Shown here piece after piece: positions 32,880-49,677 of a stretch of DNA of 64,000 bases. Every line of letters begins with the position of its first letter. Within the stretch, counting starts at the first letter, position 1. A model generated the notes under the pieces. That model worked only from the letters and a program-made list of their open reading frames with translations, was not told where the DNA came from and searched no databases. This DNA is from Tildeniella nuda ZEHNDER 1965/U140. GTDB taxonomy: Bacteria > Cyanobacteriota > Cyanobacteriia > Leptolyngbyales > Leptolyngbyaceae. Location of the stretch: the NCBI GenBank assembly GCA_019358895.1, contig JAHHIG010000003.1:248001-312000 (forward strand), read 5' to 3'. Made by a program: the position numbers and the translations under genes.

Positions 32880-33686
32880 GGGCTCTTCCCAGCTTTTGGT
32901 GATCTAGCGTCATAATTGCAAAATTTCACGATAGCTCGGCACCGGATTCTCCGGATGCTTCGGCACCTGAGTAACGATTCTTTCGGCACCTAATTCTCCG
33001 GATACCTCGGCAGGTAATTCACACTCAACATCGGCTACCTCTGACTACACTGCACTGGTTCATCAGTGAGGGGGTGTGGGAGATGGGGAAACGAAAGCAA
33101 CAAGGAGGATTACTGCCAATGGCAAAGTTTCGGGAAATGATCCGGATGCATGAGTTGGGGTACAGCCAGTGCGCGATTGCCCAGAGTTGTGCTGTAGCCC
33201 GTTCAACCGTGCAGGATTACGTGCGACGAGCGACGGCGAAAGGCTTAAGCGATGCGCAGCTGAGTCAGATGAGTGATAGCGAAGCGTTGGAACTGCTGGG
33301 CAAAGGCAAACGCAAAGTCTTGCCCAAAACTGAGACTATCGATTTTGCTCAGGTGGCAATCGAGTTGCAACGCAAAGGCGTAACGCTTGCCCTGCTGTGG
33401 CAGGGAGGATTGGAACAAGGGCAGTGGCAATTGAGTTACGGGGGCTTTTGTCGGCGCTACAACCGTTGGCGAGCGCAGCAAAAGCTATCGATGCGGCAAG
33501 TGTACAAAGGGGGCGACAAGCTCTTTGTGGACTACTGCGGACTGACGGTGCCAGTGGTCCATCCCGAAACTGGAGCAGTGACAGACGCCCAAGTCTTTGT
33601 CGCGCCATAATCCTTAGTATCGTTGGTACTATCTAGCAACGATGGTTGCTCTATGAACACTGATCACCAAAAGCTGGGAAGGGCCC
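32880..33686 (+). mobile_element. Internally deleted IS21-family element
   Basis: An 807-bp element bounded by about 25-bp inverted repeats with one mismatch (CTTCCCAGCTTTTGGTGATC at 32885; GATCACCAAAAGCTGGGAAG at 33662). The left end carries several copies of TTCGGCACC-TxxTTCTCCGG, the repeated transposase-binding sites typical of IS21 ends. Only the first third of istA remains and istB is absent, so it is non-autonomous. Confidence 0.8.
33083..33610 (+). pseudogene. IS21 transposase IstA, C-terminally truncated
   Basis: About 175 residues remain of an IstA-type transposase (normally about 500). The N-terminal helix-turn-helix is present (MIRMHELGYSQCAIAQSCAV, then ARSTVQDYVRRA). The catalytic core begins with KLFVDYCGLTVPV, whose Asp is the first of the DDE triad. 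The frame then stops at 33610, 51 bp before the right inverted repeat; the other catalytic residues and the IstB ATPase are missing. Confidence 0.85.
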
Positions 33687-33919: not shown

Positions 33920-35446
33920 ATGCCCACCAGTGCCAATCGCCTTCGTGAAATGCTCTATGGTTCTAGGATAGCTACTCTAATAGAGGCACATAATACACTT
34001 TCGGCTCTTGTGGCACAAGAGGCTGGCTTTGACGCCATCTGGCTAAGCTCTCTCACCATGTCTTGTGCATATGGAGTACGTGATAGTAATGAGCTTACAG
34101 TGGAACATATACTCGATAATATCGAGTATATTACTGAGCGCGTACATATTCCGGTTTTATTAGATGCTGATACAGGATATGGAGGTTTTAATCAGTTTCG
34201 ACGATTAGTGCGACGTCTCTGCGTACGAAAAGTGGGTGGAGTTTGTATTGAAGACAAGGTTTTCCCAAAAACTAATTCTTTCATCAATCCTACATCACAG
34301 AAACTCATCTCGATAGATGAATTCTGTGGAAAAATCCGTGCTGGTTGCGATACACGAACTGATGACTTGATCATAGTCGCTCGTACTGAAGCACTGGTGA
34401 TTGGATCTGGTCTAGATGAGGCACTTTTAAGGGGGCGAGCTTACAGCGATGCAGGGGCGGATGCACTTCTCGTACATTCAAGAGCATCGTCATTTGATGA
34501 AATTGCTGCTTTTATGAAAGAGTGGGATCGTAATATTCCCATTATTTGTGTACCTACAACTTACGCTGATACTCCCATCAACGTAATTCAAGAGGCTAGA
34601 ATTTCAGCGGTAATTTGGGCAAATCACCTCCTTCGCGCATCACTTCTGGCAATGCAGCAAACTGCATGTTATATCCTTGAACAAGGCAATGCACATGGAT
34701 TAGAGAATCAGTTAGTACCATTGAATGAGTTGTGGCGGCTTCAGAATGTTGAGGAGTTACAATCTGCTGAACATCGCTATGTTACATCTTCAAAATTGGA
34801 GACTATCTTGCTCTATCTACCTAGTCCACCCATAGTAGACTTTTACACTTCTCCACTAACTTCTAGTGATGTAATTACCCGTTGGAATAAGCAATTAAAA
34901 AGCTTTGGAGAATCTGAAATATGCAATATCAATACGTCCACAAGAGCCTCACTCAACGATCAGCACGTTCTATGTCTAGACAAGAACAGTATCGTGCAAA
35001 TCCAAAGTATTCTCGCTAGGATTGCTTCATCAACGAACGCATTTGTTATCTTAACGACTGCTACCGCTTTAGAAGACTATCTAATTAATCTTATCTACTC
35101 ATACCATTGTGAAGCGCTCATCCTTGTCAATGCGACCCAAAGTCCTGAAAAAATACCTTCTTCTTGGTGTGTGCATTGTACCAATTCATCAGGCTTAGGT
35201 GTTGTTGACACTCCTAAGCAACTCCTAAAAATAGGACATGAGGTATCTTATGAATGCACTCATGGTATGTGGACAGGAATTATGAGCTTCCGTGGCCATG
35301 GCATAAAAGCACTTTATGAAGAATTGACCCGTCTCAGTTCGAATACAAATCAACTGATTGAAATTAATGAGTTAATAAATTCCCTTGTTAGGCATGTAGA
35401 AATTAATGTGGTTTATGTGAATGGCGGATGGGAGTTCGCACAATAA
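33920..35446 (+). CDS. pepM: Phosphoenolpyruvate mutase with C-terminal extension
   Basis: A 508-aa protein whose first 290 residues are a PEP mutase, the entry enzyme of phosphonate biosynthesis (PEP to phosphonopyruvate). The hallmark EDK-x5-NS reads EDKVFPKTNS (111-120), after LLDADTGYG (metal-binding Asp) and YGVRDSNE. Lyase relatives lack this motif. The remaining 210 residues are not a second mutase. Their end (WTGIMSFRGHGIKALYEEL, then VVYVNGGWEFAQ) resembles the tail of nucleotidyltransferase domains fused to some PEP mutases, but no GxGTRL loop is present. It starts the AT-rich island and is followed 22 bp later by a NUDIX gene. Confidence 0.88.
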   Translation: MPTSANRLREMLYGSRIATLIEAHNTLSALVAQEAGFDAIWLSSLTMSCAYGVRDSNELTVEHILDNIEYITERVHIPVLLDADTGYGGFNQFRRLVRRLCVRKVGGVCIEDKVFPKTNSFINPTSQKLISIDEFCGKIRAGCDTRTDDLIIVARTEALVIGSGLDEALLRGRAYSDAGADALLVHSRASSFDEIAAFMKEWDRNIPIICVPTTYADTPINVIQEARISAVIWANHLLRASLLAMQQTACYILEQGNAHGLENQLVPLNELWRLQNVEELQSAEHRYVTSSKLETILLYLPSPPIVDFYTSPLTSSDVITRWNKQLKSFGESEICNINTSTRASLNDQHVLCLDKNSIVQIQSILARIASSTNAFVILTTATALEDYLINLIYSYHCEALILVNATQSPEKIPSSWCVHCTNSSGLGVVDTPKQLLKIGHEVSYECTHGMWTGIMSFRGHGIKALYEELTRLSSNTNQLIEINELINSLVRHVEINVVYVNGGWEFAQ

Positions 35447-35467
35447 ATGTCATAGAAACTTTCTCGT

Positions 35468-36085
35468 ATGTGTAGAAAAGTTGAGATTTTGAAACACTCT
35501 CGAATTACGAACGTTGGTCCGGGAATGGATCACCTGAAACTACGCTGCGAAAAATTTGATGGTCATATGAGCACCACCCAAGATTATTTTGTGGTGGGGG
35601 TAGGCAAACGCGCTGTGGGCGTGCTTGCGTATGACCCAATATCCGATTGCGTTGTACTTGTTGAACAATTTCGGGTAGGAGCTTATGTATCCAGGGCTTC
35701 AGTGGAAGGTTTAGGATGGACAACTGAGATTGTAATGGGGACACTTACAGATGGTGAGAAGCCAGAAGCATTAGCCCGATTGGAACTTAATGAAGAAATT
35801 GGATGTGAACCAGAGGATATTATTGAAATTTTTCAGTACTTGCCTGATCCAGCGTCTAATGCAGCACTAGTGCAGCTTTTTTGTGCTCGTGTCAAGGCTC
35901 CTAAAACTCTGGTTGAACGTGGTAATGCTTATGAGCAGGAAAATGTACGTCCCTGTATTGTATCTTGTGAGAAAATTCCCAATCTTCTTACAGAAGCATC
36001 CTGTGCTAATGCTTCTACACTATTAGCTCTTCAGTGGTTTTTGCTAAATCGCACCAAGGTACGTCATCAGTGGCTCTTAAACTAA
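35468..36085 (+). CDS. NUDIX hydrolase-like protein
   Basis: A 205-aa protein similar to ADP-ribose pyrophosphatase-type NUDIX enzymes. It has VVGVGKRAVGVLAYDP, VVLVEQFRVGAY and a Nudix box at 91-112 starting GTLTDGE and ending LELNEEIG. The box fits G-x5-E-x7-R-E-U-x-E-E-x-G except that Leu105 replaces the usual Arg; the metal-binding Glu residues (106, 109, 110) are kept. It is co-directional with pepM, and its last 4 bp overlap the end of the convergent HprK-like gene. Substrate unknown; a CMP- or other nucleotide-linked phosphonate is a guess. Confidence 0.7.
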   Translation: MCRKVEILKHSRITNVGPGMDHLKLRCEKFDGHMSTTQDYFVVGVGKRAVGVLAYDPISDCVVLVEQFRVGAYVSRASVEGLGWTTEIVMGTLTDGEKPEALARLELNEEIGCEPEDIIEIFQYLPDPASNAALVQLFCARVKAPKTLVERGNAYEQENVRPCIVSCEKIPNLLTEASCANASTLLALQWFLLNRTKVRHQWLLN

Positions 36086-37260
36086 CAGCGATCATCTGGA
36101 CTAATGGTAGGCAGGGGAGGGTAGTCGTGCAGATTCTCAGAATCTTTTTGGCAGTCAATTAGACTCCATTGAGTTTTTCTTAACTCAGGTACCTGTCCAA
36201 GTAGGTCATCCAATGAGGGACACCAGTTCAGCCGATACAATGGAACTTTAAAGGACTTTATTGCATCAACTACGCTATCAAGAGTCTTTAGAACCAAGTT
36301 AGAAGTAACAGAGTTGATTGCTAACCAATCTGAGTGATTAGGGTTAAAAATCCCCTGAAGGTATTCTGGAAGCTGCGAGGCAACTTCTTCAACATTTACT
36401 TGATGCAACTCTGGAGATTTATCCTTGCTGAAGTTAGGTAGAATAATAGCCCCAAGAGGGGCTTCTACTTCAATTCCAGCACTAAAGCGTGATGCTCCTT
36501 GTGATGGGTATAGAGCTACCTTGTTATAGACGTTCCATAGTGCATCACTATTATTTAGAATTGCACGATGTTCTTCTGGAAAATCCACCGCTAGCTCACG
36601 CAACGAAGATACAGTTGCTACTTCAACTTTGAAGAAAGCTGGCCAACCACGTGCTACGAGATGATCTTTACGTACTGCGATGCAGACATTGTCATTAGCT
36701 AGCTTTGCTACATTGAAGCTATGAAGTAGCCGACAAAGTATAGAAGTTTTACCAGCACCCTTATTACCAATAGCTATGACGGCTTGCCCATTTGCTACAA
36801 CTCCGCTAGCGTGGATAATAACACCCTCACGGCGCTGAATCGCATTCGACAAAAGATCTTCCACTATTCGTAGAACAGGAACACGTAGTGAATCTTGAGT
36901 AGGTCCCCAAATTTTTATTTCAGATGTATTTCGATCAATCCGTACAATTGCCTTACTCGGCAGCATCCAGACCCAGCGAATTTCTCCCTGATCTATATAT
37001 TTACCAGTACACTGAAGGAATGCTTTGCTTCGATCAATATCGATTTCAATACTTCCATTCTTGTTTGGCACCTCAATTGGCGGCATTCCCACTTCAACAC
37101 CAATACAAGCAATAGGTGTGTAAGTTGCTTGTCCTTGTGATGGACTTATTTTTATGTATGGTTCGAAGTATGCCTTAAGAAAAGGAATAAGGGATCCTTC
37201 AAGGTTAGGAAGAAGAACCTTGAGATCAAGATTGAAGTAAGTGAAACGGTAGTCTATCAT
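36082..37260 (-). CDS. HPr kinase-like P-loop protein A
   Basis: A 392-aa protein related to HPr(Ser) kinase. The Walker A motif is GNKGAGKT (165-172), preceded by GVIIHASGVV, and KLANDNVCI follows where HPr kinases have their second acidic motif. The N-terminal 140 residues have no recognised fold. It is the distal gene of a minus-strand run, 11 bp after a second HprK-like gene. HprK-related proteins of this type accompany peptide-modifying and small-molecule pathways, where they phosphorylate a substrate. The target here is unknown. Confidence 0.7.
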   Translation of the reverse strand: MIDYRFTYFNLDLKVLLPNLEGSLIPFLKAYFEPYIKISPSQGQATYTPIACIGVEVGMPPIEVPNKNGSIEIDIDRSKAFLQCTGKYIDQGEIRWVWMLPSKAIVRIDRNTSEIKIWGPTQDSLRVPVLRIVEDLLSNAIQRREGVIIHASGVVANGQAVIAIGNKGAGKTSILCRLLHSFNVAKLANDNVCIAVRKDHLVARGWPAFFKVEVATVSSLRELAVDFPEEHRAILNNSDALWNVYNKVALYPSQGASRFSAGIEVEAPLGAIILPNFSKDKSPELHQVNVEEVASQLPEYLQGIFNPNHSDWLAINSVTSNLVLKTLDSVVDAIKSFKVPLYRLNWCPSLDDLLGQVPELRKTQWSLIDCQKDSENLHDYPPLPTISPDDRC

Positions 37261-37271
37261 TGCTTATTTTT

Positions 37272-38384
37272 TTAATCAGCAATTATTTCTCGAAGATAGG
37301 GATGAGCTGCAGCCAGAGATGGAATTCGTTTCATTAAACTGCTCGCACTTGGTGCCCACCACATCTCAAAAAACTCGCATTGGTCTAAGAGGTTACAGGC
37401 TACAGCATCAATATTTTGGTCAATAAGTTCGTTGCCAGTGGGAAGATAGCCATGCCAATCATGATAAATAGGATCTCGGCTCCCTAGATACACAGTTCGC
37501 AAACACTCTGTAAGCGATACTATTTCGAAGATACGCTGAATCTGTGTTGGAAGATCCGGTGCAAAGTGTACAAAGATGCAAGTAGAAACTCGATCAGCAG
37601 ACGGAACAAGTCGCCGATTGAAGGCGGATACAACATTTTGAGATGTTAATATTGCCTTTTTACCCTCATTCCACAAGGTTTCGTATGGAATACCCCTACG
37701 TTCTTTTGGAAACCAAGGTGCCAAAGGTTGATGATCTGCCATAGTGCCATGAGAAACACTAAATGGTGACGGCCAACCATAAGCTCGAAGCTGTCCATTT
37801 TGACTTGCAAGCAAGACAGTGGTATCGCAGCTTAACTGATCAACCTCGAACTCCGATAACAACTCAAGGAGTAACGTCGTTTTGCCCTGCCACATATCTC
37901 CCATAATTATCGTGGCTTGCTCCTCATGCCGCACAGCTGCAGCATGCAATTGTACTCCCCCAGACTGTTCGACTGATGCTGTAAAAAAGGATTTAATTGC
38001 ACGCACAGCATCCAATATGGCGTGCTCTTGTCTTTGTTGGTAAAGTATTACCGTAGCAGTCTTCGCGTGAAAATGAAAAAGGGTATTGGTAAGGTCAATA
38101 CATACTATGTAACCATTCTCTATATTCCAACGACTTCCTTTAGATGCTAAATGAGCGTAGAGGCTAGTATCAACAACTACCTCTTTCCCTTTAGTCTTAA
38201 TGGTTTTAGCTATATGTTCTGGCGGTTCGGTCAACTGTACTTTCAGATTAAGTACTAATGAACCAACATTGTCATTACGGAACTGGAAAAATGGCTCAAC
38301 TTGGTTTGCAATCCCTTCTAAGACATCTTCTGAAGCTTCCAAATCGATGTACATTCCGGCATAGCTTAAATATTGATTGCTCAT
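37272..38384 (-). CDS. HPr kinase-like P-loop protein B
   Basis: A 370-aa paralogue-like relative of the adjacent HprK-like protein. GGVQLHAAAVR precedes a Walker A motif GDMWQGKT (162-169), then LSCDTTVLLAS. The two proteins share the order of motifs (H-A before the P-loop, GWP after it: AYGWPSPFSV here, ARGWPAFFKV there) but are divergent overall. It follows the split transketolase genes by 20 bp in the same direction, consistent with one operon. Kinase activity is inferred only from the fold. Confidence 0.68.
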   Translation of the reverse strand: MSNQYLSYAGMYIDLEASEDVLEGIANQVEPFFQFRNDNVGSLVLNLKVQLTEPPEHIAKTIKTKGKEVVVDTSLYAHLASKGSRWNIENGYIVCIDLTNTLFHFHAKTATVILYQQRQEHAILDAVRAIKSFFTASVEQSGGVQLHAAAVRHEEQATIIMGDMWQGKTTLLLELLSEFEVDQLSCDTTVLLASQNGQLRAYGWPSPFSVSHGTMADHQPLAPWFPKERRGIPYETLWNEGKKAILTSQNVVSAFNRRLVPSADRVSTCIFVHFAPDLPTQIQRIFEIVSLTECLRTVYLGSRDPIYHDWHGYLPTGNELIDQNIDAVACNLLDQCEFFEMWWAPSASSLMKRIPSLAAAHPYLREIIAD

Positions 38385-38404
38385 AGATTAATATAGAGAG
38401 AAGT

Positions 38405-39364
38405 TTATAGATGGGAGGACGAAAGGGGGAAATCACGCAGTGCCAATGCTCGAAGAGCAGCTCGTTCAATATCAATGTTTGAGAGTCCAAAGTGGATACG
38501 CAACTCCTGCCAGCTACCAGTATCTCCAAAGCAATCGTTAAGTGCTACAGGAGTACCTGGACAGCGTACTTCCCCTGCTAAAGCATGGAGAATAGCATCA
38601 TAAAGACCTCCATATCGACTGTGTTCCTCAGCAGTGACAAAACATCCACAGGAAGAACATACTTCTCGTATAGTAGTTATATCAATGGGCTTTAGAGTGC
38701 AAATTTCAACTAAGCTGGATTCAATACCTTGATTTAGCAATGATTCTGCTGCAATTATTGCTGGATGAACCATTGATCCTGTGGCAAAAATTGCTACGTC
38801 GCGTCCTTCACTTAATCTTCGAGCAGGACCAATTTGGAAGGTTTCATTAGGGGACGTAAGAATGGGAACAGGTTCTTTTTGTAGACGAATATAGACCGGA
38901 CCACTATGTTCTACTGCTGCAAAAACTGCATGACGAGCAGCATGGTAATCAACAGGCGAAATTACTGTCATTCCAGGCAGTGAGCGCATTAGAGCAATAT
39001 CCAGTACACCTTGATGCGATCCACCGTCATGGGAGGCTGCGAGACCAGCATGAGTAGCAACAATCTTCACATTCGTCCCAGCAAAGCACACTGATTGGCG
39101 AATTTGATCAAACGCCCGACCGATGAAAATTGCGTAGGTAGTGGCAAAAGGAATCAGCCCTGTCATGGATAAACCAGCAGCAACACCAATAAGGTTTTGC
39201 TCAGCTATTCCTACATTGAAGAAACGCTCTGGAAATCGTTTTCCAAATCGGTCAGTATACGTAGAACGGGATAGATCTGCATCTAGAACCACTACACGTG
39301 GATCACAACTCCCAAGTTCAAGTAAGGCCTCGCCATAAGCATCCCTCGTAGCACGCTCTAACAT
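38405..39364 (-). CDS. Transketolase, C-terminal (pyrimidine-binding) subunit
   Basis: A 319-aa subunit of a split transketolase-like enzyme. It begins with TRDAYGEALLELG and has the TPP-activating glutamate Glu55 in NVGIAEQNLIG, then the strand FATTYAIFIGRAFDQIRQS and a C-terminal transketolase domain (EICTLKPIDITTI). The start codon overlaps the stop of the N-terminal subunit gene by one base, showing translational coupling. Split transketolases of this size occur in secondary-metabolite clusters, where they transfer two-carbon units. In this island it could act on a phosphonate keto acid or aldehyde. Confidence 0.88.
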   Translation of the reverse strand: MLERATRDAYGEALLELGSCDPRVVVLDADLSRSTYTDRFGKRFPERFFNVGIAEQNLIGVAAGLSMTGLIPFATTYAIFIGRAFDQIRQSVCFAGTNVKIVATHAGLAASHDGGSHQGVLDIALMRSLPGMTVISPVDYHAARHAVFAAVEHSGPVYIRLQKEPVPILTSPNETFQIGPARRLSEGRDVAIFATGSMVHPAIIAAESLLNQGIESSLVEICTLKPIDITTIREVCSSCGCFVTAEEHSRYGGLYDAILHALAGEVRCPGTPVALNDCFGDTGSWQELRIHFGLSNIDIERAALRALALRDFPLSSSHL

Positions 39365-40200
39365 TACATCAAGGCTCCATCAAGCTCAGATAGGGCAAGG
39401 ACAAGATGGTTGTTATCAATAGGATGGTGATGCCACTTTACCACTCCTTCCATAAAAGAGACACCCCGCCCTTTAACTGTCTTAGCCACAAGAATACACG
39501 GAACTGAACTTTGGCGCGCATACCATAGAGCTTTATCAATGGCCTGAAAGTTGTGTCCATCTATCTCCATAGCCTGCCACCCAAAAGCTCGAAAGCGTGC
39601 GCAAAGATCGCCTAAAGGCATAATTGTTTCAGTATCTCCATCGTTTTGAAGTCCGTTACGATCTACAATGCAGCAGAGATTGGCAACCCCGAAGGTAGAA
39701 GCAGTATTTGCTGCCTCCCAATTCTGACCCTCCTGAAGCTCACCATCACCGAGAATACAAACTACACGGTTAGTACGTCCTTGTCGCATAAATCCTAGAG
39801 CAAGTCCCACAGCAATAGAAAGACCTTGTCCTAGTGAACCAGTAGATACGTCGATTCCTGGAAGTTGCCCAGCAACTGGATGCCCGTGAAGCCCACTCCC
39901 AAATTGACGCAAAGACTGAAGTCGCTCTTCGGAAAAGTATCCAGCAGCAGCAAGTGTTGCGTACAGAGCTGGTGAACCATGCCCCTTACTGAGAATGAAC
40001 CAGTCTCGATCTTCCCAGTTAGGGCATTTAGGATCAATCTTAAGATGCCGAAAATAGAGCATAACAAGAATCTCAATTAAGGAGAGCGAACTCCCCGCAT
40101 GTCCAGTTCCTACTGCATGAATTGCAGTCAGTACATTTTTCCTGATACGGCGAGCAGTTGTAATTAGATGCTGCTCTGTCTCAACAGAGAGTAAAGTCAT
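39364..40200 (-). CDS. Transketolase, N-terminal (TPP-binding) subunit
   Basis: A 278-aa subunit with FILSKGHGSPALYATLA, HGHPVAGQLPGID and STGSLGQGLS. The diphosphate-binding GDG motif (151-153, ILGDGELQEGQNWEAA) ends with Asn182 (VDRNG), which completes the Mg/TPP site. Together with the coupled downstream gene it makes a full transketolase-like enzyme. It begins within the last bases of the cupin gene (4-bp overlap). This is not a phosphonopyruvate-decarboxylase-type TPP enzyme by domain order. Confidence 0.9.
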   Translation of the reverse strand: MTLLSVETEQHLITTARRIRKNVLTAIHAVGTGHAGSSLSLIEILVMLYFRHLKIDPKCPNWEDRDWFILSKGHGSPALYATLAAAGYFSEERLQSLRQFGSGLHGHPVAGQLPGIDVSTGSLGQGLSIAVGLALGFMRQGRTNRVVCILGDGELQEGQNWEAANTASTFGVANLCCIVDRNGLQNDGDTETIMPLGDLCARFRAFGWQAMEIDGHNFQAIDKALWYARQSSVPCILVAKTVKGRGVSFMEGVVKWHHHPIDNNHLVLALSELDGALM

Positions 40201-40679
40201 TCAGATACTCCAACCTTTCCTATACGTCGGGCATACGGATCTGAGATACGGCACTTGTCATCTAAAATTGCTGGTGCAAATACTTCTAGAACTTCTGCCG
40301 GTTGAATACCACTGTTTGCTAATGAGTGTGGAATGCCTGGTATAGATTTTCCATGCTCAAGTGAATGTAAGTTACAGACACTAGTACCAGAAGTTAGAGT
40401 GACTTTCCCCACACGTACACAGAAGAATTCCTCTCGAGTGTTATGGTAATGCAAACTAGTACTGCGCCCAGGAAGCAGCCAAGCGCAGGACAGCCCAAAA
40501 TCTCCTTGGTCTATAAGGATGTGGTTACGTCCATAGGGTTTCTCCAAAATAAAAATAGATTGAGTAGCAAGTTCTTCAATTGGAGCTTCAAGCAGTGCAA
40601 GGAAATTTAAAGCAAAGGTTTCTGGGCAGTTTGGGAAAAGTTCTTGAAGTGCTTGCTGAATAACATTGTAATTTTTCAT
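40197..40679 (-). CDS. Cupin-domain protein
   Basis: A 160-aa cupin with the metal-binding first motif in LPGRSTSLHYHNTREEFFCV (HxH and Glu) and a weaker second motif around PGIPHSLANSG. It resembles sugar- or phosphonate-pathway cupins such as mannose-6-phosphate isomerase type II or HPP-dioxygenase relatives. Whether it is an isomerase, an oxygenase or a binding protein cannot be told. It overlaps the transketolase N-subunit gene by 4 bp, so it belongs to the same operon. Confidence 0.75.
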   Translation of the reverse strand: MKNYNVIQQALQELFPNCPETFALNFLALLEAPIEELATQSIFILEKPYGRNHILIDQGDFGLSCAWLLPGRSTSLHYHNTREEFFCVRVGKVTLTSGTSVCNLHSLEHGKSIPGIPHSLANSGIQPAEVLEVFAPAILDDKCRISDPYARRIGKVGVSE

Positions 40680-40762
40680 TTCTTTAGGCTTCCTTGAATT
40701 TACTTGTTCTTCTATATTTTTTACCCGTATTTGTTTAGTTGCTAATTAAAATTCAGTTCCAG

Positions 40763-41566
40763 TTATGATTTGATTGCACGTATAAAAATGTAGTCACCAA
40801 TTTGATCATCATAATATTGATTGCAAACTTGCTTAAAGTGACCTGAAACAATATCATCAGAAAGTTTTGCACATCCTTCAGATACCTCGTCTTGATCCGC
40901 CAAAGTAGCAAAGGTCGATGATCCTCGACGTATACGTTCATCAAGGTATATCTCGGGTCGATGCTTTCCGCTGTAAAGAAAGAAATCTTGAAGATCAGGC
41001 AACACAAAGTAGGGCTCAAGCTTATCAATGTAAAAGCCTCCTTGCTGGAGACTATCTAATGTATCGGGTAGTGTTGGCATCTGCGTAATTGATCGCTGCA
41101 TTGCCTTCGGAAAATAGTGATTCAGCCAATAATTTTCCATTTGCTCTGCCGTAGACGTAAACAGTACAAGAGGAGAGCCAACTTTAAGAATACGTGCCGA
41201 TTCACGAAAAACTCGCACAGAATTTTCGAAGTGATGTAGTGCTAACGTGATAATAACTCCATCAAAGCTTTCACTATCGAAAGGTAGATCTTCTGCGTCA
41301 GCAACACACCAAGTTATATCTAGCGATTTTCTTGATGCCTTTTTAAGCATTACTGATGAGTGATCAATCCCAGTCCATTTACCTGCTTTGGTTGCAAGAG
41401 CAAGGGTATAATTCCCAGTACCACAAGCTATATCTAGGTAATGACTGCTGTTACGAGGGTCAAGCAATTGGGTAATACAGTTCACAAGGTAAGGATCTGC
41501 TTGACGGGTGAGATTATATCCCTTTCCAATTTTTTCATAAGTAGGATCGTCCCTATTAGACTTCAT
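40763..41566 (-). CDS. Class I SAM-dependent methyltransferase
   Basis: A 267-aa methyltransferase with motif I DIACGTGNY (45-53), acidic motif II (WTGIDHSSVM), ADAEDLPFDSESFDGVI (motif III/IV region) and LALHHFENSVRVFRESARIL. This is the UbiE/Methyltransf_11 type, acting on small molecules. It lies 83 bp before the cupin gene in the same direction. In the island it is a candidate tailoring enzyme for the phosphonate product. Confidence 0.85.
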   Translation of the reverse strand: MKSNRDDPTYEKIGKGYNLTRQADPYLVNCITQLLDPRNSSHYLDIACGTGNYTLALATKAGKWTGIDHSSVMLKKASRKSLDITWCVADAEDLPFDSESFDGVIITLALHHFENSVRVFRESARILKVGSPLVLFTSTAEQMENYWLNHYFPKAMQRSITQMPTLPDTLDSLQQGGFYIDKLEPYFVLPDLQDFFLYSGKHRPEIYLDERIRRGSSTFATLADQDEVSEGCAKLSDDIVSGHFKQVCNQYYDDQIGDYIFIRAIKS

Positions 41567-41767
41567 GGTTCACCTCTATAAGATTCTAATTATTTCAAAT
41601 CTTCAATACACTCAAGCCATTCAACTTGAATAAACTGGTCAAGTAATCCCTAGAGCTAGCTGAGAATTTAAAGGTACGCAAGTTCAAGTGTCTCCAAAGA
41701 ATTCTTTCCCTGTTCTTAAAAAACTTTAATCTCGTCAAAAAATCACCTTACTGCTATACCTGCTTGA

Positions 41768-43681
41768 TTACCATTGCGAAAGAAAAAGCTCGAGATTAAA
41801 GAGAAGCCAAAGACGTTTTCCAAAAGCATCACTTGGGCATGCGGCTCCTTTCTCAAGCCAAGCTTTGAGATGATTAGGTTCGAATAATTCAGCTGTGCGC
41901 GCTTTAGGTGAAAGAAGCCGCTCACGAATTTGACCTAGTCTTTCCACTCCTAGCCACTGGCCTAAGGGCATAGGAAACCCCATTTTCTTACGACGAAGTA
42001 CCGAGATGGGAATAGATGAGCCATAAGCGCGTCTTAAAATTACTTTTGTCTCGTCAAACCGTTCGCTAAAAGAGCTGACTGGCTTCATTGCAGCAATTGC
42101 ACATCCTAAAGGATTACGCCAACGCAACCGATCTTCTACCGGAAGATTTACAGCCGCTTGTACAAGGTGATGGTTAAGAAAAGGAACACGTGCTTCCACT
42201 CCAGCAGCCATAGTCGTAGCATCTAGCATCGCAAGAAGTCCTGGTAAATGAAGCTCAAGAAAAACCAACATAATTCTGTTAACAGGTTGGAGATGACTAC
42301 TGCGCTCAAAAACTTTAGCAAATTCAACGTTGAGTGCAGCATCTGTATCTACCTGTACACGTATTTCTGGACGAAAGAGTAGTAACTTTTCTAAAATAGG
42401 GAAATAGCTATAGCGCCTTAAGAAGAAATCAACTTCTGACAAACAATGAGCATCATTTTCTATACTAAGTCGCGCTCGTAGAGCATTAGAGAATTGAGTT
42501 GGTAGCATTGCAGCAAACTTAGCGCGCTGATAGTCATATAAACTACGATAGATTCGACTGTAGCCAGCAAAGAGCTCATCAGCTCCCTCCCCACAAAGCA
42601 CTACTTTGCTGTAGCGTGCTGCTTCGCGCGCTAAAAGATACATTCCTACTTCGTTATGCATTGCTGTGGGCTCACCTCTTCTAGCAACCAAATCCTCCGC
42701 AACCATAATAGGGTCGTGTTCATCCAAATCAACTAAGTGATGGCTTAGCCCAAGAGCACTTGCTACTTCATGTGCGTATGCACTCTCGTTATAAGCGTCT
42801 TCCTTAAGCTGGGCAGTAAACGATAACAACGGGCAAGACGCAATTCGCCTCGCTTCCAACGCTATAATGGAAGAGTCGAGACCTCCTGAAAGAAATAAGG
42901 ATACGGGGTGATCTGCAATTAGGTTCTGACGTACAGATTTATTTATAAGTGAGGAGATATAGTCTGCACGCAAGTCAGCTCGACCCAGAAGTGGTAACTC
43001 GTGAAGATTTAGCTGCCAATAGCAATGACGGCGATGTATGCCTTCTCCGATTTCTAAGATAGTAGCCGGAGGCACACGGTTGGCACCATAGAAGTAGGAC
43101 TCTTCGCCTATAGCATAGCGGTACGAGAGGAAAGAAGATACAGCTAGAGGATTCAGACGACGTTCAAACCCAGGATAGTTTGCAATTCCTGTTAACTCAG
43201 AAGAGAAAATGATGGTACTACGAATGAATGCATAGTAAAGGGGCTTAATTCCGAAGCGATCGCGAACGAGGTAAATCCTTCTCTTTTCTAGATCATAAAG
43301 TGCAAACGCAAATTGTCCTTCAAAGCGGCAAACGCAATTAATTCCCCATTCACGGTAAGCTTCAACTAAAACCTCAGTATCTGTTTTGGTACGAAAGTGG
43401 TGACCACAAATCTCAAGCTCATGCTTCAGCTCTAGGAAATTAAAAATTTCTCCATTGTACGTAACCCAAACCGTGCCTGTAGCATCAGACATTGGTTGGT
43501 TGGAGCGAGGGTGAGTATCCAAAATTGCCAGACGTAAATGCCCTAAAACTGCACCATCTAACTGCTGAATCCTCGAAGCATCCGGTCCTCTATATGTCAT
43601 CCCATTCAGGATTGCAACAACCAATTCTGGTTCAAGCCGAACTTGGTGGTCAAGTGCTACTACGCCAGCGATTCCGCACAT
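41768..43681 (-). CDS. asnB: Asparagine synthetase (glutamine-hydrolysing)-like
   Basis: A 637-aa amidotransferase. Cys2 in MCGIAGVVAL is the glutaminase nucleophile, and YRGPDASRIQ and TYNGEIFNF complete the N-terminal Ntn domain. The C-terminal synthetase has the pyrophosphate loop SGGLDSS (265-271) and LCGEGADELFAGYSR. Both half-reactions therefore look intact, unlike lasso-peptide cyclases, which lack the Cys. In natural-product clusters such enzymes amidate carboxylates or form amide bonds, so it may tailor the phosphonate. The downstream methyltransferase is 201 bp away; the upstream cytidylyltransferase is 3 bp away. Confidence 0.88.
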   Translation of the reverse strand: MCGIAGVVALDHQVRLEPELVVAILNGMTYRGPDASRIQQLDGAVLGHLRLAILDTHPRSNQPMSDATGTVWVTYNGEIFNFLELKHELEICGHHFRTKTDTEVLVEAYREWGINCVCRFEGQFAFALYDLEKRRIYLVRDRFGIKPLYYAFIRSTIIFSSELTGIANYPGFERRLNPLAVSSFLSYRYAIGEESYFYGANRVPPATILEIGEGIHRRHCYWQLNLHELPLLGRADLRADYISSLINKSVRQNLIADHPVSLFLSGGLDSSIIALEARRIASCPLLSFTAQLKEDAYNESAYAHEVASALGLSHHLVDLDEHDPIMVAEDLVARRGEPTAMHNEVGMYLLAREAARYSKVVLCGEGADELFAGYSRIYRSLYDYQRAKFAAMLPTQFSNALRARLSIENDAHCLSEVDFFLRRYSYFPILEKLLLFRPEIRVQVDTDAALNVEFAKVFERSSHLQPVNRIMLVFLELHLPGLLAMLDATTMAAGVEARVPFLNHHLVQAAVNLPVEDRLRWRNPLGCAIAAMKPVSSFSERFDETKVILRRAYGSSIPISVLRRKKMGFPMPLGQWLGVERLGQIRERLLSPKARTAELFEPNHLKAWLEKGAACPSDAFGKRLWLLFNLELFLSQW

Positions 43682-43684
43682 ACC

Positions 43685-44467
43685 TTAATTAGAACATATA
43701 AAGTGTCGCTCTGCCTCTGCTAAATCAGATGGAGTATCAATCTCAAACCACTGGCTTAAACCTACATTAAATGCCATTAGAGGCAACTTCCCGGCTTCAA
43801 TCCAAGTTTGCATCGCATACTCCAGCGGAGCAGTTGAATCCCATCGCTTGAGGGTTGTGTCTATTGCAGTTAGAAGAATGGTTTCCCAATTCCCCTCGCG
43901 TAAAAGGTACAGATTCACTGTCTTCCAAGCATTTTCAAAAGAGAAGTCTAATGGTCTGGCACTCGCGTGATATAAACCAATTACATATCCATCAGAAGAA
44001 CACTTAGCAAAACTCCCATTTGTATCAATTTCCGGTGAGTACGGGGCGAGCACACTTAAGTTTTTACGTTCTACTGCAAGTACACGAGCCACAAGTTCAC
44101 TTTCAAATACCATATCTCCTTCAATTACCAGTACGTCACGTTGTCGCGGAACTAGAGTAAGTCCCATTTGAAGAGAAATAGCAGTGCCGGTCTCAGCAAA
44201 ACGCTGGTTAACAACAGTTTTAATAGATAAAGTGCTCTCAAGATTCTTAAGGAACTCTTGAACCTGCTCGTGACGATATCCTAAAACTATTACTATCTCT
44301 TTAACACCACAATCCTCCAGAGATTGAAGAATTCGGCTAAGGATAGGTTGATCATTTACTTGTACTAAACATTTAGGACAATTATGGGTGATCTGTCCTA
44401 ACCGTGTTCCCAGTCCTGCTGCGAGGATCAGAGCTATAGGAGGAGGATTTTGATAAACTGTGTTCAT
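43685..44467 (-). CDS. Phosphonate/phosphocholine cytidylyltransferase-like (PntC-type)
   Basis: A 260-aa nucleotidyltransferase with the signature ILAAGLGTRLGQITHNCPK (14-32), where Lys32 contacts the triphosphate, and VIEGDMVFESELV for the metal site. The compact size and the tail WFEIDTPSDLAEAERHF match LicC/PntC enzymes that activate phosphocholine or 2-aminoethylphosphonate as the CMP derivative. Beside an AEP transaminase (4-bp ATGA overlap), PntC is the natural reading. This would prepare CMP-AEP for attachment to a lipid or glycan, or as a pathway intermediate. Confidence 0.78.
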   Translation of the reverse strand: MNTVYQNPPPIALILAAGLGTRLGQITHNCPKCLVQVNDQPILSRILQSLEDCGVKEIVIVLGYRHEQVQEFLKNLESTLSIKTVVNQRFAETGTAISLQMGLTLVPRQRDVLVIEGDMVFESELVARVLAVERKNLSVLAPYSPEIDTNGSFAKCSSDGYVIGLYHASARPLDFSFENAWKTVNLYLLREGNWETILLTAIDTTLKRWDSTAPLEYAMQTWIEAGKLPLMAFNVGLSQWFEIDTPSDLAEAERHFICSN

Positions 44468-45549
44468 CGCTTACCTACCTTAGGAAGGGCTTCTGAAAGC
44501 TGCGTAAGGAACCATGCTACGTTTTCTGAGTTCATATGTCCAAGAGTAGCAATAGCCATGTAGCCAGCATCCACAATTTCCTGATGAGTATGTACTATTG
44601 CACCTCGCTGATTTAGTTCTTGTTGGAGAGCTGAATAGTTTACATTGTGAGGAATACGGAACAAGCTAAGGATGTTGGACTGCACATCGGGACTCACTAA
44701 GGCAAGCTCTAAACCCAGATCTAACAATCCTTGTTGAAGCTGATCTCGGAGAGTTTGGTAACGACAGATTCGCTTTGGAACAGTTTCTTCTACTAACAAT
44801 CCAACAGCTATATCTGCCGCAGCCAGTAACTGGACTGGTGCAGTATAAGGGGTTGCGCGATTCTCTTTACACGCACGCCATTGTTCATGAATGTCTAGAT
44901 AGAAGCTACGAGATTTACCTGCACTCGCCGAAATGAGATCAGTACGGCCTATTACGAAGGAGACTCCCGGTAAGCCCTCTAAGCACTTATTGGCATTAAG
45001 AGAGCAAAAAGCTACATTATGAGCAACTATGTCAAACTCGTGCCCACCAATACTTGCTATTCCATCTACTAATAGCTGACAACCGTAGCGGTCGGCTATT
45101 TCACCTATCTTCTGAAGGGGAGCCAAAAACCCAGTAGTCGTCTGAAGATGAACTACAAAAATATATTTAATATATGGGTCCGAATCCAGTGCTAACTGAA
45201 TGGCCTCTAGGTTGATTGGCTCCATTGGTGATGTAGCTACTATTCGGACATTAAGCTGATGGCGTCGAGCAATCTCACCAATTCGTTTAGCATATCGCCC
45301 ATTGTCAAGGAGTAGAAGTTTTCCCTCTAGGCTTGCTAAAATCGCTTCATTTGCTCCTGTGCCTGAAGCTGCAAAAGGTACACAGCTATGCGTTTCGGTT
45401 CCTCCCACAATCCCTTCTAGCCGTTGACAAAGACGTTCAAGGATAGCTGCAAACACAGGCTCACGATGGCTCATGTTTTCTACTAGGAGAGCCCGCTGTA
45501 CTAACGGATGTACATTGGTAGGACCAGGTGTAAATAGTAACCTTTGCAT
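44464..45549 (-). CDS. 2-aminoethylphosphonate transaminase-like (class V aminotransferase)
   Basis: A 361-aa PLP enzyme of the alanine-glyoxylate/PhnW group. It starts LLFTPGPTNVHPLVQRAL and MSHREPVF. The PLP lysine is Lys188 in NANKCLEGLPGVSFVI, nearly identical in wording to PhnW, and LVDGIASIGG carries the PLP-ring Asp162. In this context it should convert phosphonoacetaldehyde to 2-aminoethylphosphonate. It is the first gene of the minus-strand operon, and its stop overlaps the cytidylyltransferase start. A serine-glyoxylate or phosphonoalanine transaminase role is an alternative. Confidence 0.8.
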   Translation of the reverse strand: MQRLLFTPGPTNVHPLVQRALLVENMSHREPVFAAILERLCQRLEGIVGGTETHSCVPFAASGTGANEAILASLEGKLLLLDNGRYAKRIGEIARRHQLNVRIVATSPMEPINLEAIQLALDSDPYIKYIFVVHLQTTTGFLAPLQKIGEIADRYGCQLLVDGIASIGGHEFDIVAHNVAFCSLNANKCLEGLPGVSFVIGRTDLISASAGKSRSFYLDIHEQWRACKENRATPYTAPVQLLAAADIAVGLLVEETVPKRICRYQTLRDQLQQGLLDLGLELALVSPDVQSNILSLFRIPHNVNYSALQQELNQRGAIVHTHQEIVDAGYMAIATLGHMNSENVAWFLTQLSEALPKVGKR

Positions 45550-45930
45550 ATCAAATGCATATCAAAGCTGTTGGCATAAATAGAAGCTGTTTTAGAAGTA
45601 GAAGCTATTTTCAGATTTCATAGAGGATAGTATTCCATTAACTAGTGAAACCGTTTGCTAATTCATTCAAATATATTTAGCGATATATATATATATGAAA
45701 TTATTAACTTTTGTATACTAATGTGTCGTTTTAGGACTGTATTTTCCTCTTATGGCAGTTTTAGATTACTATTCAATTAAATTTTGAGTAATTCCCTTTA
45801 AGGATTTTTCTGTTTGTATCTAGAATTAACCAAATTTCTATTATGAGCATTCCGAGAAAGTTCTTCATTCTTGCTTCTTGATGAGTCTTGGTTACTTTTA
45901 TCTTCCATCTTAATTAATTCATGGGGGCAC
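45550..45930. promoter_or_regulatory. Divergent AT-rich promoter region of the island
   Basis: About 380 bp between the divergent aminotransferase (minus) and TPR (plus) genes, strongly AT-rich, with an alternating AT tract around 45683-45697. It is the only place where the two arms of the island can have promoters. No repeat or operator is obvious. Confidence 0.55.
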
Positions 45931-46677
45931 ATGAAACGCTATAGCCAGACGAATCTTGTAGAGCTTGCATCTCTTCTTAAGGAACGGACATCTCAATCAC
46001 TTAACGAAATAGATTCTAGTTTGACTGATCAGACAGCAGGAGGGGCTTTAGCTAGAGGGCGTCTATTCTCCTTATACGGTTTACATGAGGAAGCGATTGA
46101 TTGCTTTAGTGACGCTCTTAGCTTAGACAGGGATTTGGATGATGCGCTTATTCGATTAGCAATAACTCAGCTCAAGGCAGGATATGTCGAAGCAGCACTT
46201 AAGAATGCTATGGTTTTGGCTGCGCGTAATCCTAACTTTGAATTTAGAGCTCAAACTACAGACGAAGTCGTTTCTGCAATGACAATTTTAGGTGATGCTT
46301 TGGCCGCTAGCGAGCGCTTAGAAGATGCTATAGAAGCCTATAAAATTGCCATTAAAATTAATCCTCAGGGTAACTACACTCCTGCTAGATTAGCTCAGGT
46401 TTATCTAGCTACGGGTAATCAAGATGAAGCTGTCGAACTTGCTCCACAATTTGCTAATAACCTTCGGTTTGCAGATCTTCATCATGTGCTCTCTCTAGGT
46501 AGGGAGAGCAAAGCTCTCTTACCAAAGTTCAATAGTAGTTTCATACGTTCTCAAATACTTTCAACAGTTGTTGGACGTCCTTTCAGTGTTAGAGGAAGCA
46601 TACGTTTGGCAGAACTGGTTCAAGACAATAATTGGTGTGTTGATATTCAAGACATTCTTCTAGACAATGACACCTGA
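45931..46677 (+). CDS. TPR-repeat protein
   Basis: A 248-aa protein with about four tetratricopeptide-like repeats: GRLFSLYGLHEEAIDCFSDA, LAITQLKAGYVEAALKNAMV, LGDALAASERLEDAIEAYKI and LAQVYLATGNQDEAVELA. The ATG at 45931 follows GGGGGC; the frame extends to 45871 but those residues are hydrophobic and unlike the family. Its 3' end overlaps the ferritin-like gene by 11 bp. Probably a scaffold for the neighbouring enzymes. Confidence 0.7.
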   Translation: MKRYSQTNLVELASLLKERTSQSLNEIDSSLTDQTAGGALARGRLFSLYGLHEEAIDCFSDALSLDRDLDDALIRLAITQLKAGYVEAALKNAMVLAARNPNFEFRAQTTDEVVSAMTILGDALAASERLEDAIEAYKIAIKINPQGNYTPARLAQVYLATGNQDEAVELAPQFANNLRFADLHHVLSLGRESKALLPKFNSSFIRSQILSTVVGRPFSVRGSIRLAELVQDNNWCVDIQDILLDNDT

Positions 46678-47335
46678 AGAGCGGATACGACTGGGAAACG
46701 CTTGGCTAAAAATGGGACTAGGGGAACATGCATCGGTAGCTGCATTTTCTCGCTTTGTATTGCAATTACTCGGGTTGGGAGCGCCTCCTGACTTGATTAG
46801 AGATACTATCAAAGCTATGGATGATGAAGTTCAGCACGCACGTCTATGCTTTGGATTAGCTTCAGAGTTTACAGGTCAAGCAGTTGGACCGGGGCGAATG
46901 AATCTTTCGAATGTTCTAGAACAAGCAGACGATCCCCAATCCATCTTAGAATTGGCGATTATTGAGGGATGTTTTGGAGAAACAATTTCAGCAGCTTGTG
47001 CAAAAGTAGCTTCCGAGCGTACTGAAGACATCAATATCCGTGCAGTGATTCTACGTATTGCTAAAGATGAATCTAGGCACGCGGATTTGTCTTGGCGTTC
47101 TGTTCACTGGATACTCAAGGCATACCCAGAATTAAGATCTATCGCGAGAGATGCCTTTATCCACTCCATAACACATGCTTCACCTGTAACACATGCTTCA
47201 CCTGTAGAAGAAGATGAATATGATTCCTTCGAGAAGTATGGTCATCTATCGCTTAGCTCAAAACAAGCAATCACTGAGCAAGTACTCAAGCAGGTGATAC
47301 GTCCGAGAATGGAGGAAATTTTCAGTAGTTCTTAG
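46667..47335 (+). CDS. Ferritin-like diiron protein
   Basis: A 222-aa four-helix protein with the carboxylate/His pattern of ferritin-like diiron enzymes: Glu20 in GLGEHASVAAF, E54xxH57 in DDEVQHARL, Glu100/Glu105 in IIEGCFGETI and E135xxH138 in KDESRHADL. The two ExxH motifs suggest a diiron oxidase or oxygenase rather than iron storage. A perfect 18-bp direct repeat (47170-47205) duplicates the sequence THASPV near the C-terminus. It sits between a TPR protein and a nucleotidyltransferase and may supply an oxidation step in the island pathway. Confidence 0.75.
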   Translation: MTPEERIRLGNAWLKMGLGEHASVAAFSRFVLQLLGLGAPPDLIRDTIKAMDDEVQHARLCFGLASEFTGQAVGPGRMNLSNVLEQADDPQSILELAIIEGCFGETISAACAKVASERTEDINIRAVILRIAKDESRHADLSWRSVHWILKAYPELRSIARDAFIHSITHASPVTHASPVEEDEYDSFEKYGHLSLSSKQAITEQVLKQVIRPRMEEIFSSS

Positions 47336-47367
47336 AGAACTAACTGTGTAATCTAATTAACTGGAAG

Positions 47368-48561
47368 ATGGATCTTAGTCGATTTCTAGAGTGGAATAAA
47401 ATTTCTCTTGATGATGTTTTTTCTCAAGCAAATGCTTCACTAGAACTTGTGACTGGAGATGTATTGTTTGCTGCCGGTTCGGTTGTGGAAGGGTTAGGGA
47501 ACTATAGGTCAGATTTGGATCTAATCCTCATTACTCAACGAAACGACATTCAGTACACATCCCTGAATGACGTTACTGTAACAGTAGGCGATTGCATCAT
47601 TGATATTCGGGTAATTCAGTTTGCTGAACTGGAATATCTTTTGATGTACTTTGATCAGTGGTCTAAACAGCCTAGAGAACCGCGGAGAGCAAAACAATTC
47701 ACTGAAGCCGAACGAATGCTTCTCCATCGACTTCGAACTGGACAGCCAATATATGGTGAAACTCTATTTGGACAGTTAAGGAACCAAGTTAACCCAACTG
47801 AATTAGCTCGTCTTAAATTAGACTTCGCTAGACACTTTGCTAGTACTATTCAGGTAGATTTAGATGGGTTTAGAACTGTAGGCGACCATTATTCAATGTT
47901 ATTTGCAGCACAAGAGTTACTTGGACACACAATTGATGCTCTTTTAGCAGGATACCGCCGTACAAACCCTTATCCAAAGTGGAGAGTTCGCTTATTACAA
48001 GATTTACCCAAAAACTGGGATATGCAAATACCTGGACGAATCGATGGGCTAGATCCAGTACAAACATTCCTTAAACTTCATTGTGCCATTCAAAATGACG
48101 TACCCACTAAAATTTTTGATCATGCATTGCAGATAGTTGCCTTTTCAAGGAGGGTTTTTCCTTGGGCAGAGTACAGTCTTTTGGACTCTCAGAGAGAGCA
48201 ATTATCGGAAGGACTTATAGGAAGCTCTGCCAGTGTATCTACCTTCTTAGAAGAACCTGTCCTACCGCACTTGAATTTAGACGTTGAGGTGAGCTACCAA
48301 GATAATCAGTTAGAGTTACGTTGTCTAAATCGTCGGGAAAATCTGTACATGCTATCTCCACAAATGTATTTATTATTATGTCTTTTTGATGGAAAAACTA
48401 CTGAGACAGAAGTTGTTTCTTATCTAGAGAAGCTTAATTCAAAAAATACTTTCACTGTTTCCTTAGATGAAGCGAAAGCTTTAGTACGATATGCTAACCT
48501 TCAAGCTAAGCCTATATTTAATCAATCGCAATTAGACTCGATTTTTAGTCGCTTCTCATAA
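47368..48561 (+). CDS. Nucleotidyltransferase with C-terminal PqqD-like domain
   Basis: A 397-aa protein. The N-terminal half is a Pol-beta-like nucleotidyltransferase: GS-x9-SDLD (residues 37-51, within AAGSVVEGLGNYRSDLDLIL) and the third carboxylate Asp79 in CIIDIRV. The middle is helical. The C-terminal 90 residues (LYMLSPQMYLLLCLFDGKTT, then EVVSYLEKL) look like the winged-helix PqqD fold used to bind peptides in RiPP systems. HprK-like kinases, a nucleotidyltransferase and a PqqD-like module are known to co-occur, which links this gene to the two kinases at 36-38 kb. Last gene of the island. Confidence 0.65.
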   Translation: MDLSRFLEWNKISLDDVFSQANASLELVTGDVLFAAGSVVEGLGNYRSDLDLILITQRNDIQYTSLNDVTVTVGDCIIDIRVIQFAELEYLLMYFDQWSKQPREPRRAKQFTEAERMLLHRLRTGQPIYGETLFGQLRNQVNPTELARLKLDFARHFASTIQVDLDGFRTVGDHYSMLFAAQELLGHTIDALLAGYRRTNPYPKWRVRLLQDLPKNWDMQIPGRIDGLDPVQTFLKLHCAIQNDVPTKIFDHALQIVAFSRRVFPWAEYSLLDSQREQLSEGLIGSSASVSTFLEEPVLPHLNLDVEVSYQDNQLELRCLNRRENLYMLSPQMYLLLCLFDGKTTETEVVSYLEKLNSKNTFTVSLDEAKALVRYANLQAKPIFNQSQLDSIFSRFS

Positions 48562-49628: not shown

Positions 49629-49677
49629 TTAGCCAGTTGAATCAGTTCCTGCTAGTCCAGGTAGCATCCCAACATCG

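What the first reader, a model, noticed from the sequence alone, without database searches (positions are those of the whole stretch)
33920..48561. Candidate undescribed phosphonate biosynthesis island
PEP mutase with a clean EDK-x5-NS motif, an AEP-type transaminase with the PhnW-like NANKCLEG lysine site and a PntC-like cytidylyltransferase are seen in the sequence. Established knowledge: these are the entry, amination and CMP-activation steps of phosphonate metabolism. Inference: together with asparagine synthetase, a methyltransferase, a cupin, a split transketolase, two HprK-like kinases, a diiron protein and a NUDIX protein, they form one pathway with a combination I do not recognise from known clusters such as fosfomycin, phosphinothricin, dehydrophos or rhizocticin.
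Basis: partly seen in the sequence, partly recalled or inferred. Interest (0 to 1): 0.82.

Follow-up and report, generated by a model that had tools for sequence, protein, structure and literature searches.

The report
Unusual cyanobacterial phosphonate biosynthesis island
A cyanobacterium carries an apparently mobile set of genes that very likely makes a carbon-phosphorus compound, but by a route lacking the usual second enzyme and containing helper genes (a two-piece transketolase, two HprK-like kinases, a nucleotidyltransferase) not seen together elsewhere, so its product may be new.

Summary
Window 33,920-48,561 (a cyanobacterium) encodes a true PEP mutase (EDKX5NS; TIGR02320 above cut-off; inside the PepM clade, apart from isocitrate-lyase types), a PhnW-like class V aminotransferase, a PntC-like cytidylyltransferase, an AsnB, a methyltransferase, a cupin, a split transketolase, two HprK-like proteins, and NUDIX, TPR, ferritin-like and nucleotidyltransferase-fold proteins. 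It is a low-GC (41-45% against 50-56%), IS-bounded, strain-specific island.

No phosphonopyruvate decarboxylase was found in the genome. The aminotransferase has lost an arginine present in 71 of 71 relatives. The nucleotidyltransferase domain fused to PepM is degenerate. The free PntC groups (99/97, long branch) with those of decarboxylase-less pepM-aminotransferase-pntC cassettes on rhizobial plasmids, and the AsnB is sister (100/100) to one from such a cassette. The nucleotidyltransferase and HprK proteins have relatives inside two Rhizobium phosphonate clusters.

Best reading: a decarboxylase-independent phosphonate pathway, probably through phosphonoalanine and a CMP-activated phosphonate, with unassigned tailoring genes. 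The full combination was found nowhere else; its parts recur. It is a new variant of a known kind; the product is unknown.

The parts
33920..35446 (+). pepM: PEP mutase (residues about 1-290) with a C-terminal degenerate PntC-type nucleotidyltransferase domain
   Evidence: TIGR02320 above cut-off; PepM clade 100/100. C-domain keeps 16 of 47 columns conserved in 76 fused relatives, against 117 of 166 in the PepM domain; loses PK.ML, GY, EL and GD motifs
35468..36085 (+). NUDIX hydrolase, ADP-ribose diphosphatase-like
   Evidence: PF00293 25.4 bits, cut-off 21.1; ADP-ribose diphosphatase NCBIfam hits below cut-off
36082..37260 (-). HprK-like P-loop protein 1
   Evidence: TIGR04355 E 7e-9, below cut-off; Walker A, conserved His and Asp shared with HprK-like proteins of Rhizobium phosphonate clusters
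37272..38384 (-). HprK-like P-loop protein 2
   Evidence: TIGR04355 E 2e-6, below cut-off; 24% identical to protein 1
38405..39364 (-). split transketolase, C-terminal chain
   Evidence: 298 bits to 6YAJ; GIAEQN and DGGSHQ motifs kept
39364..40200 (-). split transketolase, N-terminal chain
   Evidence: 246 bits to 6YAK; catalytic His motifs kept
40197..40679 (-). small cupin, mannose-phosphate-isomerase-like
   Evidence: PF01050 just over cut-off
40763..41566 (-). class I SAM methyltransferase
   Evidence: PF08241 79 bits
41768..43681 (-). asparagine synthetase B-like amidotransferase
   Evidence: TIGR01536 above cut-off; sister to AsnB of the S. fredii pepM cluster, 41% identity, 100/100
43685..44467 (-). 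stand-alone PntC-like cytidylyltransferase
   Evidence: Catalytic motifs intact; groups with PntCs of Ppd-less clusters 99/97, p-AU 0.066 against the alternative
44464..45549 (-). PhnW-like class V aminotransferase, K188 kept, conserved Arg replaced by Ala332
   Evidence: TIGR03301 319.8 bits, cut-off 360.8; alignment of 71 relatives
45871..46677 (+). TPR protein
   Evidence: PF00515 45 bits
46667..47335 (+). ferritin-like (putative diiron) protein
   Evidence: Motif level only; no database hit
47368..48561 (+). nucleotidyltransferase-fold protein (GSxxEGxGNxxSDLDL)
   Evidence: 32-40% identical to proteins inside two Rhizobium phosphonate clusters; none in 389 other cyanobacterial genomes
32880..33686 (.). 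left edge: truncated IS21 element with inverted ends
   Evidence: NF033546 fragment; 25-nt inverted ends 32880/33662
48661..49747 (.). right edge: IS630 transposase and IS21-end remnants
   Evidence: NF033545; 47-nt inverted match 32917-32963 / 49701-49747

Best explanation
This is a horizontally acquired phosphonate biosynthesis island that does not use phosphonopyruvate decarboxylase. PepM isomerises PEP to phosphonopyruvate (inferred from family, motif and phylogeny). The unfavourable equilibrium is most likely pulled by the PhnW-like aminotransferase acting on phosphonopyruvate to give phosphonoalanine, the logic proven for PnaA in phosphonoalamide biosynthesis (inference). The free-standing PntC-like enzyme then activates the product as a CMP-phosphonate, replacing the apparently dead nucleotidyltransferase domain of PepM (inference). 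AsnB makes an amide, the methyltransferase and other enzymes tailor it, and the nucleotidyltransferase-fold protein may transfer the phosphonyl group to an acceptor, standing in for the CDP-alcohol phosphotransferase of the rhizobial cassettes (inference, weak). The roles of the split transketolase, HprK-like proteins, cupin, NUDIX and ferritin-like protein are not assigned; the transketolase probably supplies or extends a carbon unit.
For: True PepM by family cut-off, motif and tree. No Ppd above cut-off in a 96%-complete genome. Seven of eight rhizobial plasmid cassettes inspected combine pepM with a class I/II aminotransferase of one family and a PntC-like gene, and none of the eight has Ppd in the 15-19 kb fetched; at least four also have an annotated AsnB-type gene near pepM. 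The window's AsnB is sister to one of these (100/100) and its PntC groups with theirs (99/97). At 36 columns that separate the two PntC types, the window matches the Ppd-less type at 15 and the Ppd type at 6, while left-out Ppd-type controls match their own type at 31-38 and the other at 0-4. Transamination as a PepM coupling step is proven for PnaA (PMC11867202). NT-fold protein present without CDP-alcohol phosphotransferase in the window and two Rhizobium clusters; the reverse in ten other clusters. Low GC, IS edges and absence from six congeners.
Against: The aminotransferase lost the arginine that in fold type I transaminases normally binds the carboxylate (A332; 71/71 Arg in relatives), which does not favour phosphonopyruvate as substrate and may mean a quite different reaction. 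It is class V, whereas PnaA and the rhizobial enzymes are class I/II. The window PntC has a long branch, and the alternative placement is not rejected (p-AU 0.066). About 4% of the genome may be missing. No biochemical data exist for any of these proteins.
Confidence: 0.55

Rival explanations
1. The split transketolase is the PepM coupling enzyme: it takes phosphonopyruvate (an analogue of hydroxypyruvate, a known transketolase donor) as ketol donor, releases CO2 and joins the two-carbon phosphonyl unit to an aldehyde, giving a phosphono-ketose that is then aminated and activated.
For: No Ppd; the transketolase is an extra TPP enzyme besides a housekeeping transketolase and a DXS-like protein with TPP and catalytic motifs kept; it lies inside the nine-gene run; another pepM cluster, in Streptomyces aurantiacus, has a similar split transketolase next to pepM.
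Against: The Streptomyces cluster also has Ppd, so there the transketolase is not needed as coupling enzyme. Its motifs are those of ordinary sugar transketolases. No transketolase is among the PepM coupling enzymes listed in the literature read (PMC12871164).
Confidence: 0.15
2. Ordinary AEP pathway: a decarboxylase encoded elsewhere makes phosphonoacetaldehyde, the aminotransferase makes AEP and PntC makes CMP-AEP for surface decoration.
For: The aminotransferase is closest to PhnW/AepZ; activation of AEP by PntC is the characterised pattern (PMC6697681) and the matching gene set is seen in four other cyanobacteria.
Against: No Ppd above cut-off in the genome; A332; the PntC groups with the other branch.
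Confidence: 0.15
3. The transketolase uses phosphonoacetaldehyde or another aldehyde as acceptor and builds a phosphono-sugar or aminosugar, with HprK-like kinases phosphorylating the polyol; phosphonoalanine is not an intermediate.
For: Split transketolase beside pepM and ppd in Streptomyces; cupin of the mannose-phosphate-isomerase type.
Against: Needs phosphonoacetaldehyde, for which no source is seen.
Confidence: 0.1
4. A decaying or inactive transferred fragment.
For: IS remnants at both edges; the degenerate domain of PepM.
Against: All fourteen frames are open and the catalytic motifs of PepM, PntC and transketolase are kept; a free PntC could compensate for the dead domain.
Confidence: 0.05

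Closest known systems
Rhizobial plasmid cassettes pepM - class I/II aminotransferase - PntC-like - CDP-alcohol phosphotransferase, often with AsnB-type genes (S. fredii L174, R. leguminosarum L172, Mesorhizobium L173/L175, S. meliloti L186, Agrobacterium L187); no published description found in the library searched
   Same: PepM, an aminotransferase, PntC of the same branch, AsnB (S. fredii sister gene), no Ppd nearby
   Different: Window has a class V aminotransferase, a PepM with degenerate fused domain, split transketolase, HprK-like and NT-fold proteins, no CDP-alcohol phosphotransferase
Rhizobium NT clusters (R. leguminosarum pRLTp73_2 L163, R. rhizoryzae L164)
   Same: PepM, PntC-like, AsnB (36% identical), HprK-like, ferritin-like and NT-fold proteins (NT 32-40% identical)
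   Different: They have Ppd, TauD, a thymidylate-kinase-like protein and a conserved 71-residue peptide; their PepM belongs to another deep branch; ferritin-like proteins not detectably homologous
Pnt (AEP) clusters pntC-pepM-ppd-aept of Burkholderia, Mycetohabitans, Nostoc and other cyanobacteria
   Same: PepM with C-terminal NTase domain, PntC, PhnW-like aminotransferase
   Different: Window lacks Ppd; fused domain degenerate; aminotransferase pocket changed; extra genes
Phosphonoalamide biosynthesis (PnaD/PnaA, Streptomyces)
   Same: Proposed PepM-transaminase coupling without Ppd
   Different: PnaA is of the aspartate aminotransferase family; ATP-grasp ligases instead of PntC and AsnB

Membership tests
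PEP mutase (PepM) | EDKX5NS motif and TIGR02320 cut-off | tested here: met
   EDKVFPKTNS; 329.7 against 319.55 bits
PEP mutase (PepM) | Groups with PepMs, not with isocitrate-lyase-type enzymes | tested here: met
   100/100 split from four non-PepM relatives
PEP mutase (PepM) | Converts PEP to phosphonopyruvate | not testable with these tools
   needs an enzyme assay
AEP (Pnt) pathway | Phosphonopyruvate decarboxylase present | tested here: not met
   TIGR03297, nothing over cut-off in the genome; genome 96% complete
PhnW/AEP transaminase | PLP lysine | tested here: met
   K188 in NANKCLEG
PhnW/AEP transaminase | Family cut-off (TIGR03301) and conserved substrate-site Arg | tested here: not met
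   319.8 of 360.8 bits; A332, 71/71 relatives Arg
PntC cytidylyltransferase | NTase motifs (LAAGxGTRL, PK, EGD, EID) | tested here: met
PntC cytidylyltransferase, AEP branch | Groups with PntCs of Ppd-containing clusters | tested here: inconclusive
   Groups with the other branch 99/97, but p-AU 0.066 and long branch
Phosphonoalanine pathway (PnaA type) | Class I/II phosphonopyruvate aminotransferase | tested here: not met
   Aminotransferase is class V; so it may work like this pathway but is not a member
HprK-related kinase | TIGR04355 cut-off | tested here: not met
   35 and 27 bits against 200; Walker A, His and Asp kept
Split transketolase | Two chains matching a solved split transketolase, catalytic His and Glu kept | tested here: met
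Ferritin-like diiron protein | Fold and four-helix carboxylate/His site | tested here: inconclusive
   Motifs only; all-helical model of pLDDT 48

The most novel reading that the evidence does not exclude
The split transketolase is a new type of PepM coupling enzyme that decarboxylates phosphonopyruvate and forms a new C-C bond in one step, giving a phosphono-ketose natural product class; the arginine-less aminotransferase then acts on that ketose.
Probability: 0.13. Interest if true: 0.82.

Novelty: new variant of a known kind. Interest (0 to 1): 0.55.

Why it matters
PepM-based phosphonate routes are usually driven by decarboxylation to phosphonoacetaldehyde; few other coupling steps are known. 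This island and the rhizobial cassettes found on the way suggest a widely spread, decarboxylase-free branch in which the phosphonate is aminated and then CMP-activated. If true, CMP-phosphonoalanine would be a new activated building block, and the PntC family would fall into two branches by substrate. In the library searched, no paper combines phosphonoalanine, cytidylyltransferase, aminotransferase and phosphonate, or pepM, asparagine synthase, phosphonate and cytidylyltransferase. The split transketolase makes a specific, testable case for a new coupling chemistry.

Tried and rejected
Structure prediction of the ferritin-like protein and HprK-like protein 1 gave low-confidence models (pLDDT 48 and 39), so no fold search was run. 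A PqqD-like domain at the end of the nucleotidyltransferase-fold protein, suspected by eye, was not supported by Pfam. A precursor peptide like the conserved 71-residue one of the Rhizobium clusters was not found in the window, so a RiPP reading was dropped. Looking for the same HprK and NT proteins in other cyanobacteria: none among 389 other genomes each (one marginal HprK hit, E 5e-6). Close relatives of the whole PepM: best full-length identity about 38-39% among hits in 84,980 species genomes (a pattern-based search that can miss relatives). Near-identical DNA on plasmids: none. The right junction of the island could not be placed from congeners: similarity stops at 32,662 and nothing to the right aligns.
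Full report
What is there. The window lies in contig C24 of a 6.08 Mb, 96% complete genome with psbA-type genes, hence a cyanobacterium. Fourteen intact genes occupy 33,920-48,561: pepM and a NUDIX gene on the plus strand; a tight nine-gene minus-strand run (45,549 down to 36,082: aminotransferase, PntC-like, AsnB, methyltransferase, cupin, transketolase N, transketolase C, HprK-like 2, HprK-like 1); and a plus-strand run of TPR, ferritin-like and nucleotidyltransferase-fold genes.

PepM is real. It passes the PepM cut-off and fails those of phosphonopyruvate hydrolase and methylisocitrate lyase, carries EDKX5NS, aligns over its whole domain to Mytilus PEP mutase, and sits in the PepM clade (100/100) on a separate branch without a supported sister. 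Its domain is 51-53% identical to Burkholderia-type PepMs. A C-terminal domain of about 215 residues aligns with the nucleotidyltransferase domain fused to those PepMs, but keeps only 16 of 47 conserved columns (117 of 166 in the PepM domain) and has lost the PK, GY, EL and GD motifs: a dead domain by sequence. Fusion of PepM with such domains is common (PMC6697681); its decay beside a free, intact PntC-like gene is the oddity.

No decarboxylase. A search of the genome for phosphonopyruvate decarboxylase found nothing above cut-off; the best hit (32 bits) is a 614-residue frame elsewhere. Four other cyanobacteria with pepM, and Burkholderia-type, Mycetohabitans and Roseomonas clusters, have the usual pepM-ppd-aminotransferase set (in the Burkholderia loci the gap between pepM and the aminotransferase fits ppd, but was not annotated here). 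Known PepM coupling steps are decarboxylation, transamination, reduction and an acetyl-CoA condensation (PMC12871164); of these only transamination has a candidate in the island. The genome's other transketolase-type hits are a housekeeping transketolase and a weaker hit in a 638-residue frame that is probably DXS, so the split transketolase is an extra enzyme; its catalytic motifs are kept.

The aminotransferase is not a normal PhnW. It keeps the PLP lysine (K188) but scores below the PhnW-AepZ cut-off, and alanine stands at position 332 where 71 of 71 phosphonate-cluster relatives have arginine, the position of Salmonella PhnW Arg340 by alignment (the numbering and role of that arginine are from general knowledge). 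It also differs in the HxETTTGR stretch. Nothing closer than about 31-32% was found among about 390 cyanobacterial genomes. Its substrate has therefore probably changed.

Relatives elsewhere. Rhizobial plasmids carry pepM - class I/II aminotransferase - PntC-like - CDP-alcohol phosphotransferase cassettes (seven with that aminotransferase, an eighth with a histidinol-phosphate-type one), several with AsnB-type genes, and no Ppd in the fetched 15-19 kb. The window's PntC groups with theirs (99/97), although its branch is long and a topology test does not reject the other side (p-AU 0.066); at 36 type-specific columns it matches them at 15 and the Ppd type at 6. The window's AsnB is sister (100/100, 41% identity) to the AsnB of the S. 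fredii cassette and further from paralogues in its own genome and genus, 25-30%.

A second link. The nucleotidyltransferase-fold protein (47,368) has relatives (32-40%) inside two Rhizobium clusters that also hold pepM, ppd, a PntC-like gene, AsnB, an HprK-like and a ferritin-like protein. HprK-like and NT-fold proteins also sit together on a Parageobacillus plasmid without PepM, so they may be a module not limited to phosphonates. In this small sample, clusters with the NT-fold gene lack CDP-alcohol phosphotransferase and the reverse (3 against 10); since LicD-type phosphotransferases share the nucleotidyltransferase fold (general knowledge), the NT-fold protein could be the transferase. This is an inference. 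A split transketolase next to pepM recurs in Streptomyces aurantiacus, there with ppd.

Mobility. The cluster is 41-45% GC in a 50-56% background. A truncated IS21 element lies on the left; an IS630 gene and IS21-end remnants lie on the right, with a 47-nt inverted match between the edges. The six congeners searched have no pepM; in three of the four compared, similarity to the window ends at 32,662, just left of the IS remnant.

How it most likely works. Shown by sequence: PepM, an intact PntC-like enzyme, AsnB, an intact split transketolase, no detectable Ppd, an altered aminotransferase, horizontal origin. Inferred: phosphonopyruvate is drained by transamination to phosphonoalanine, activated as a CMP-phosphonate, amidated and otherwise tailored, and perhaps transferred to an acceptor. 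The lost arginine is the main difficulty; the chief rival is that the transketolase consumes phosphonopyruvate.

Verdict. A new variant of phosphonate biosynthesis, of real interest to specialists, with the product and several steps unknown.

Noticed in passing
window 50903-59692: A DISARM anti-phage system (DrmC, DrmB, DrmA by PADLOC and NCBIfam) with a UvrD-like helicase gene lies directly right of the island.
   Followed up: partly
L172, L173, L174, L175, L185, L186, L187: Decarboxylase-less pepM - class I/II aminotransferase - PntC-like - CDP-alcohol phosphotransferase cassettes on rhizobial and Agrobacterium plasmids, often with AsnB-type genes; no description found in the library searched.
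   Followed up: partly
L163 13597-13812; L164 10665-10880: A 71-residue peptide gene, 82% identical between two Rhizobium phosphonate clusters with an invariant tail FVAMNSPFDPVSQC, next to a ferritin-like gene: possible precursor peptide.
   Followed up: partly
L167 13483-15968: Dolichospermum plasmid: a 71-residue peptide with a leader-like LNGG site, then a ferritin-like protein related to those of the Rhizobium phosphonate clusters (31%), then a cupin: looks like a RiPP cluster.
   Followed up: no
L162 14210-18756: Streptomyces aurantiacus plasmid: class IV aminotransferase, split transketolase, pepM and ppd followed by a transporter and an NRPS/PKS gene: possibly an uncharacterised phosphonate cluster.
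   Followed up: no
L165 7142-14825: Parageobacillus plasmid cluster joining an NT-fold protein, PqqD, inositol-phosphate synthase, SAM synthetase and an HprK-like protein without PepM.
   Followed up: no
L189 9001-17605: Azospirillum thermophilum: pepM and ppd with three aminotransferases next to contractile injection system tape-measure genes.
   Followed up: no
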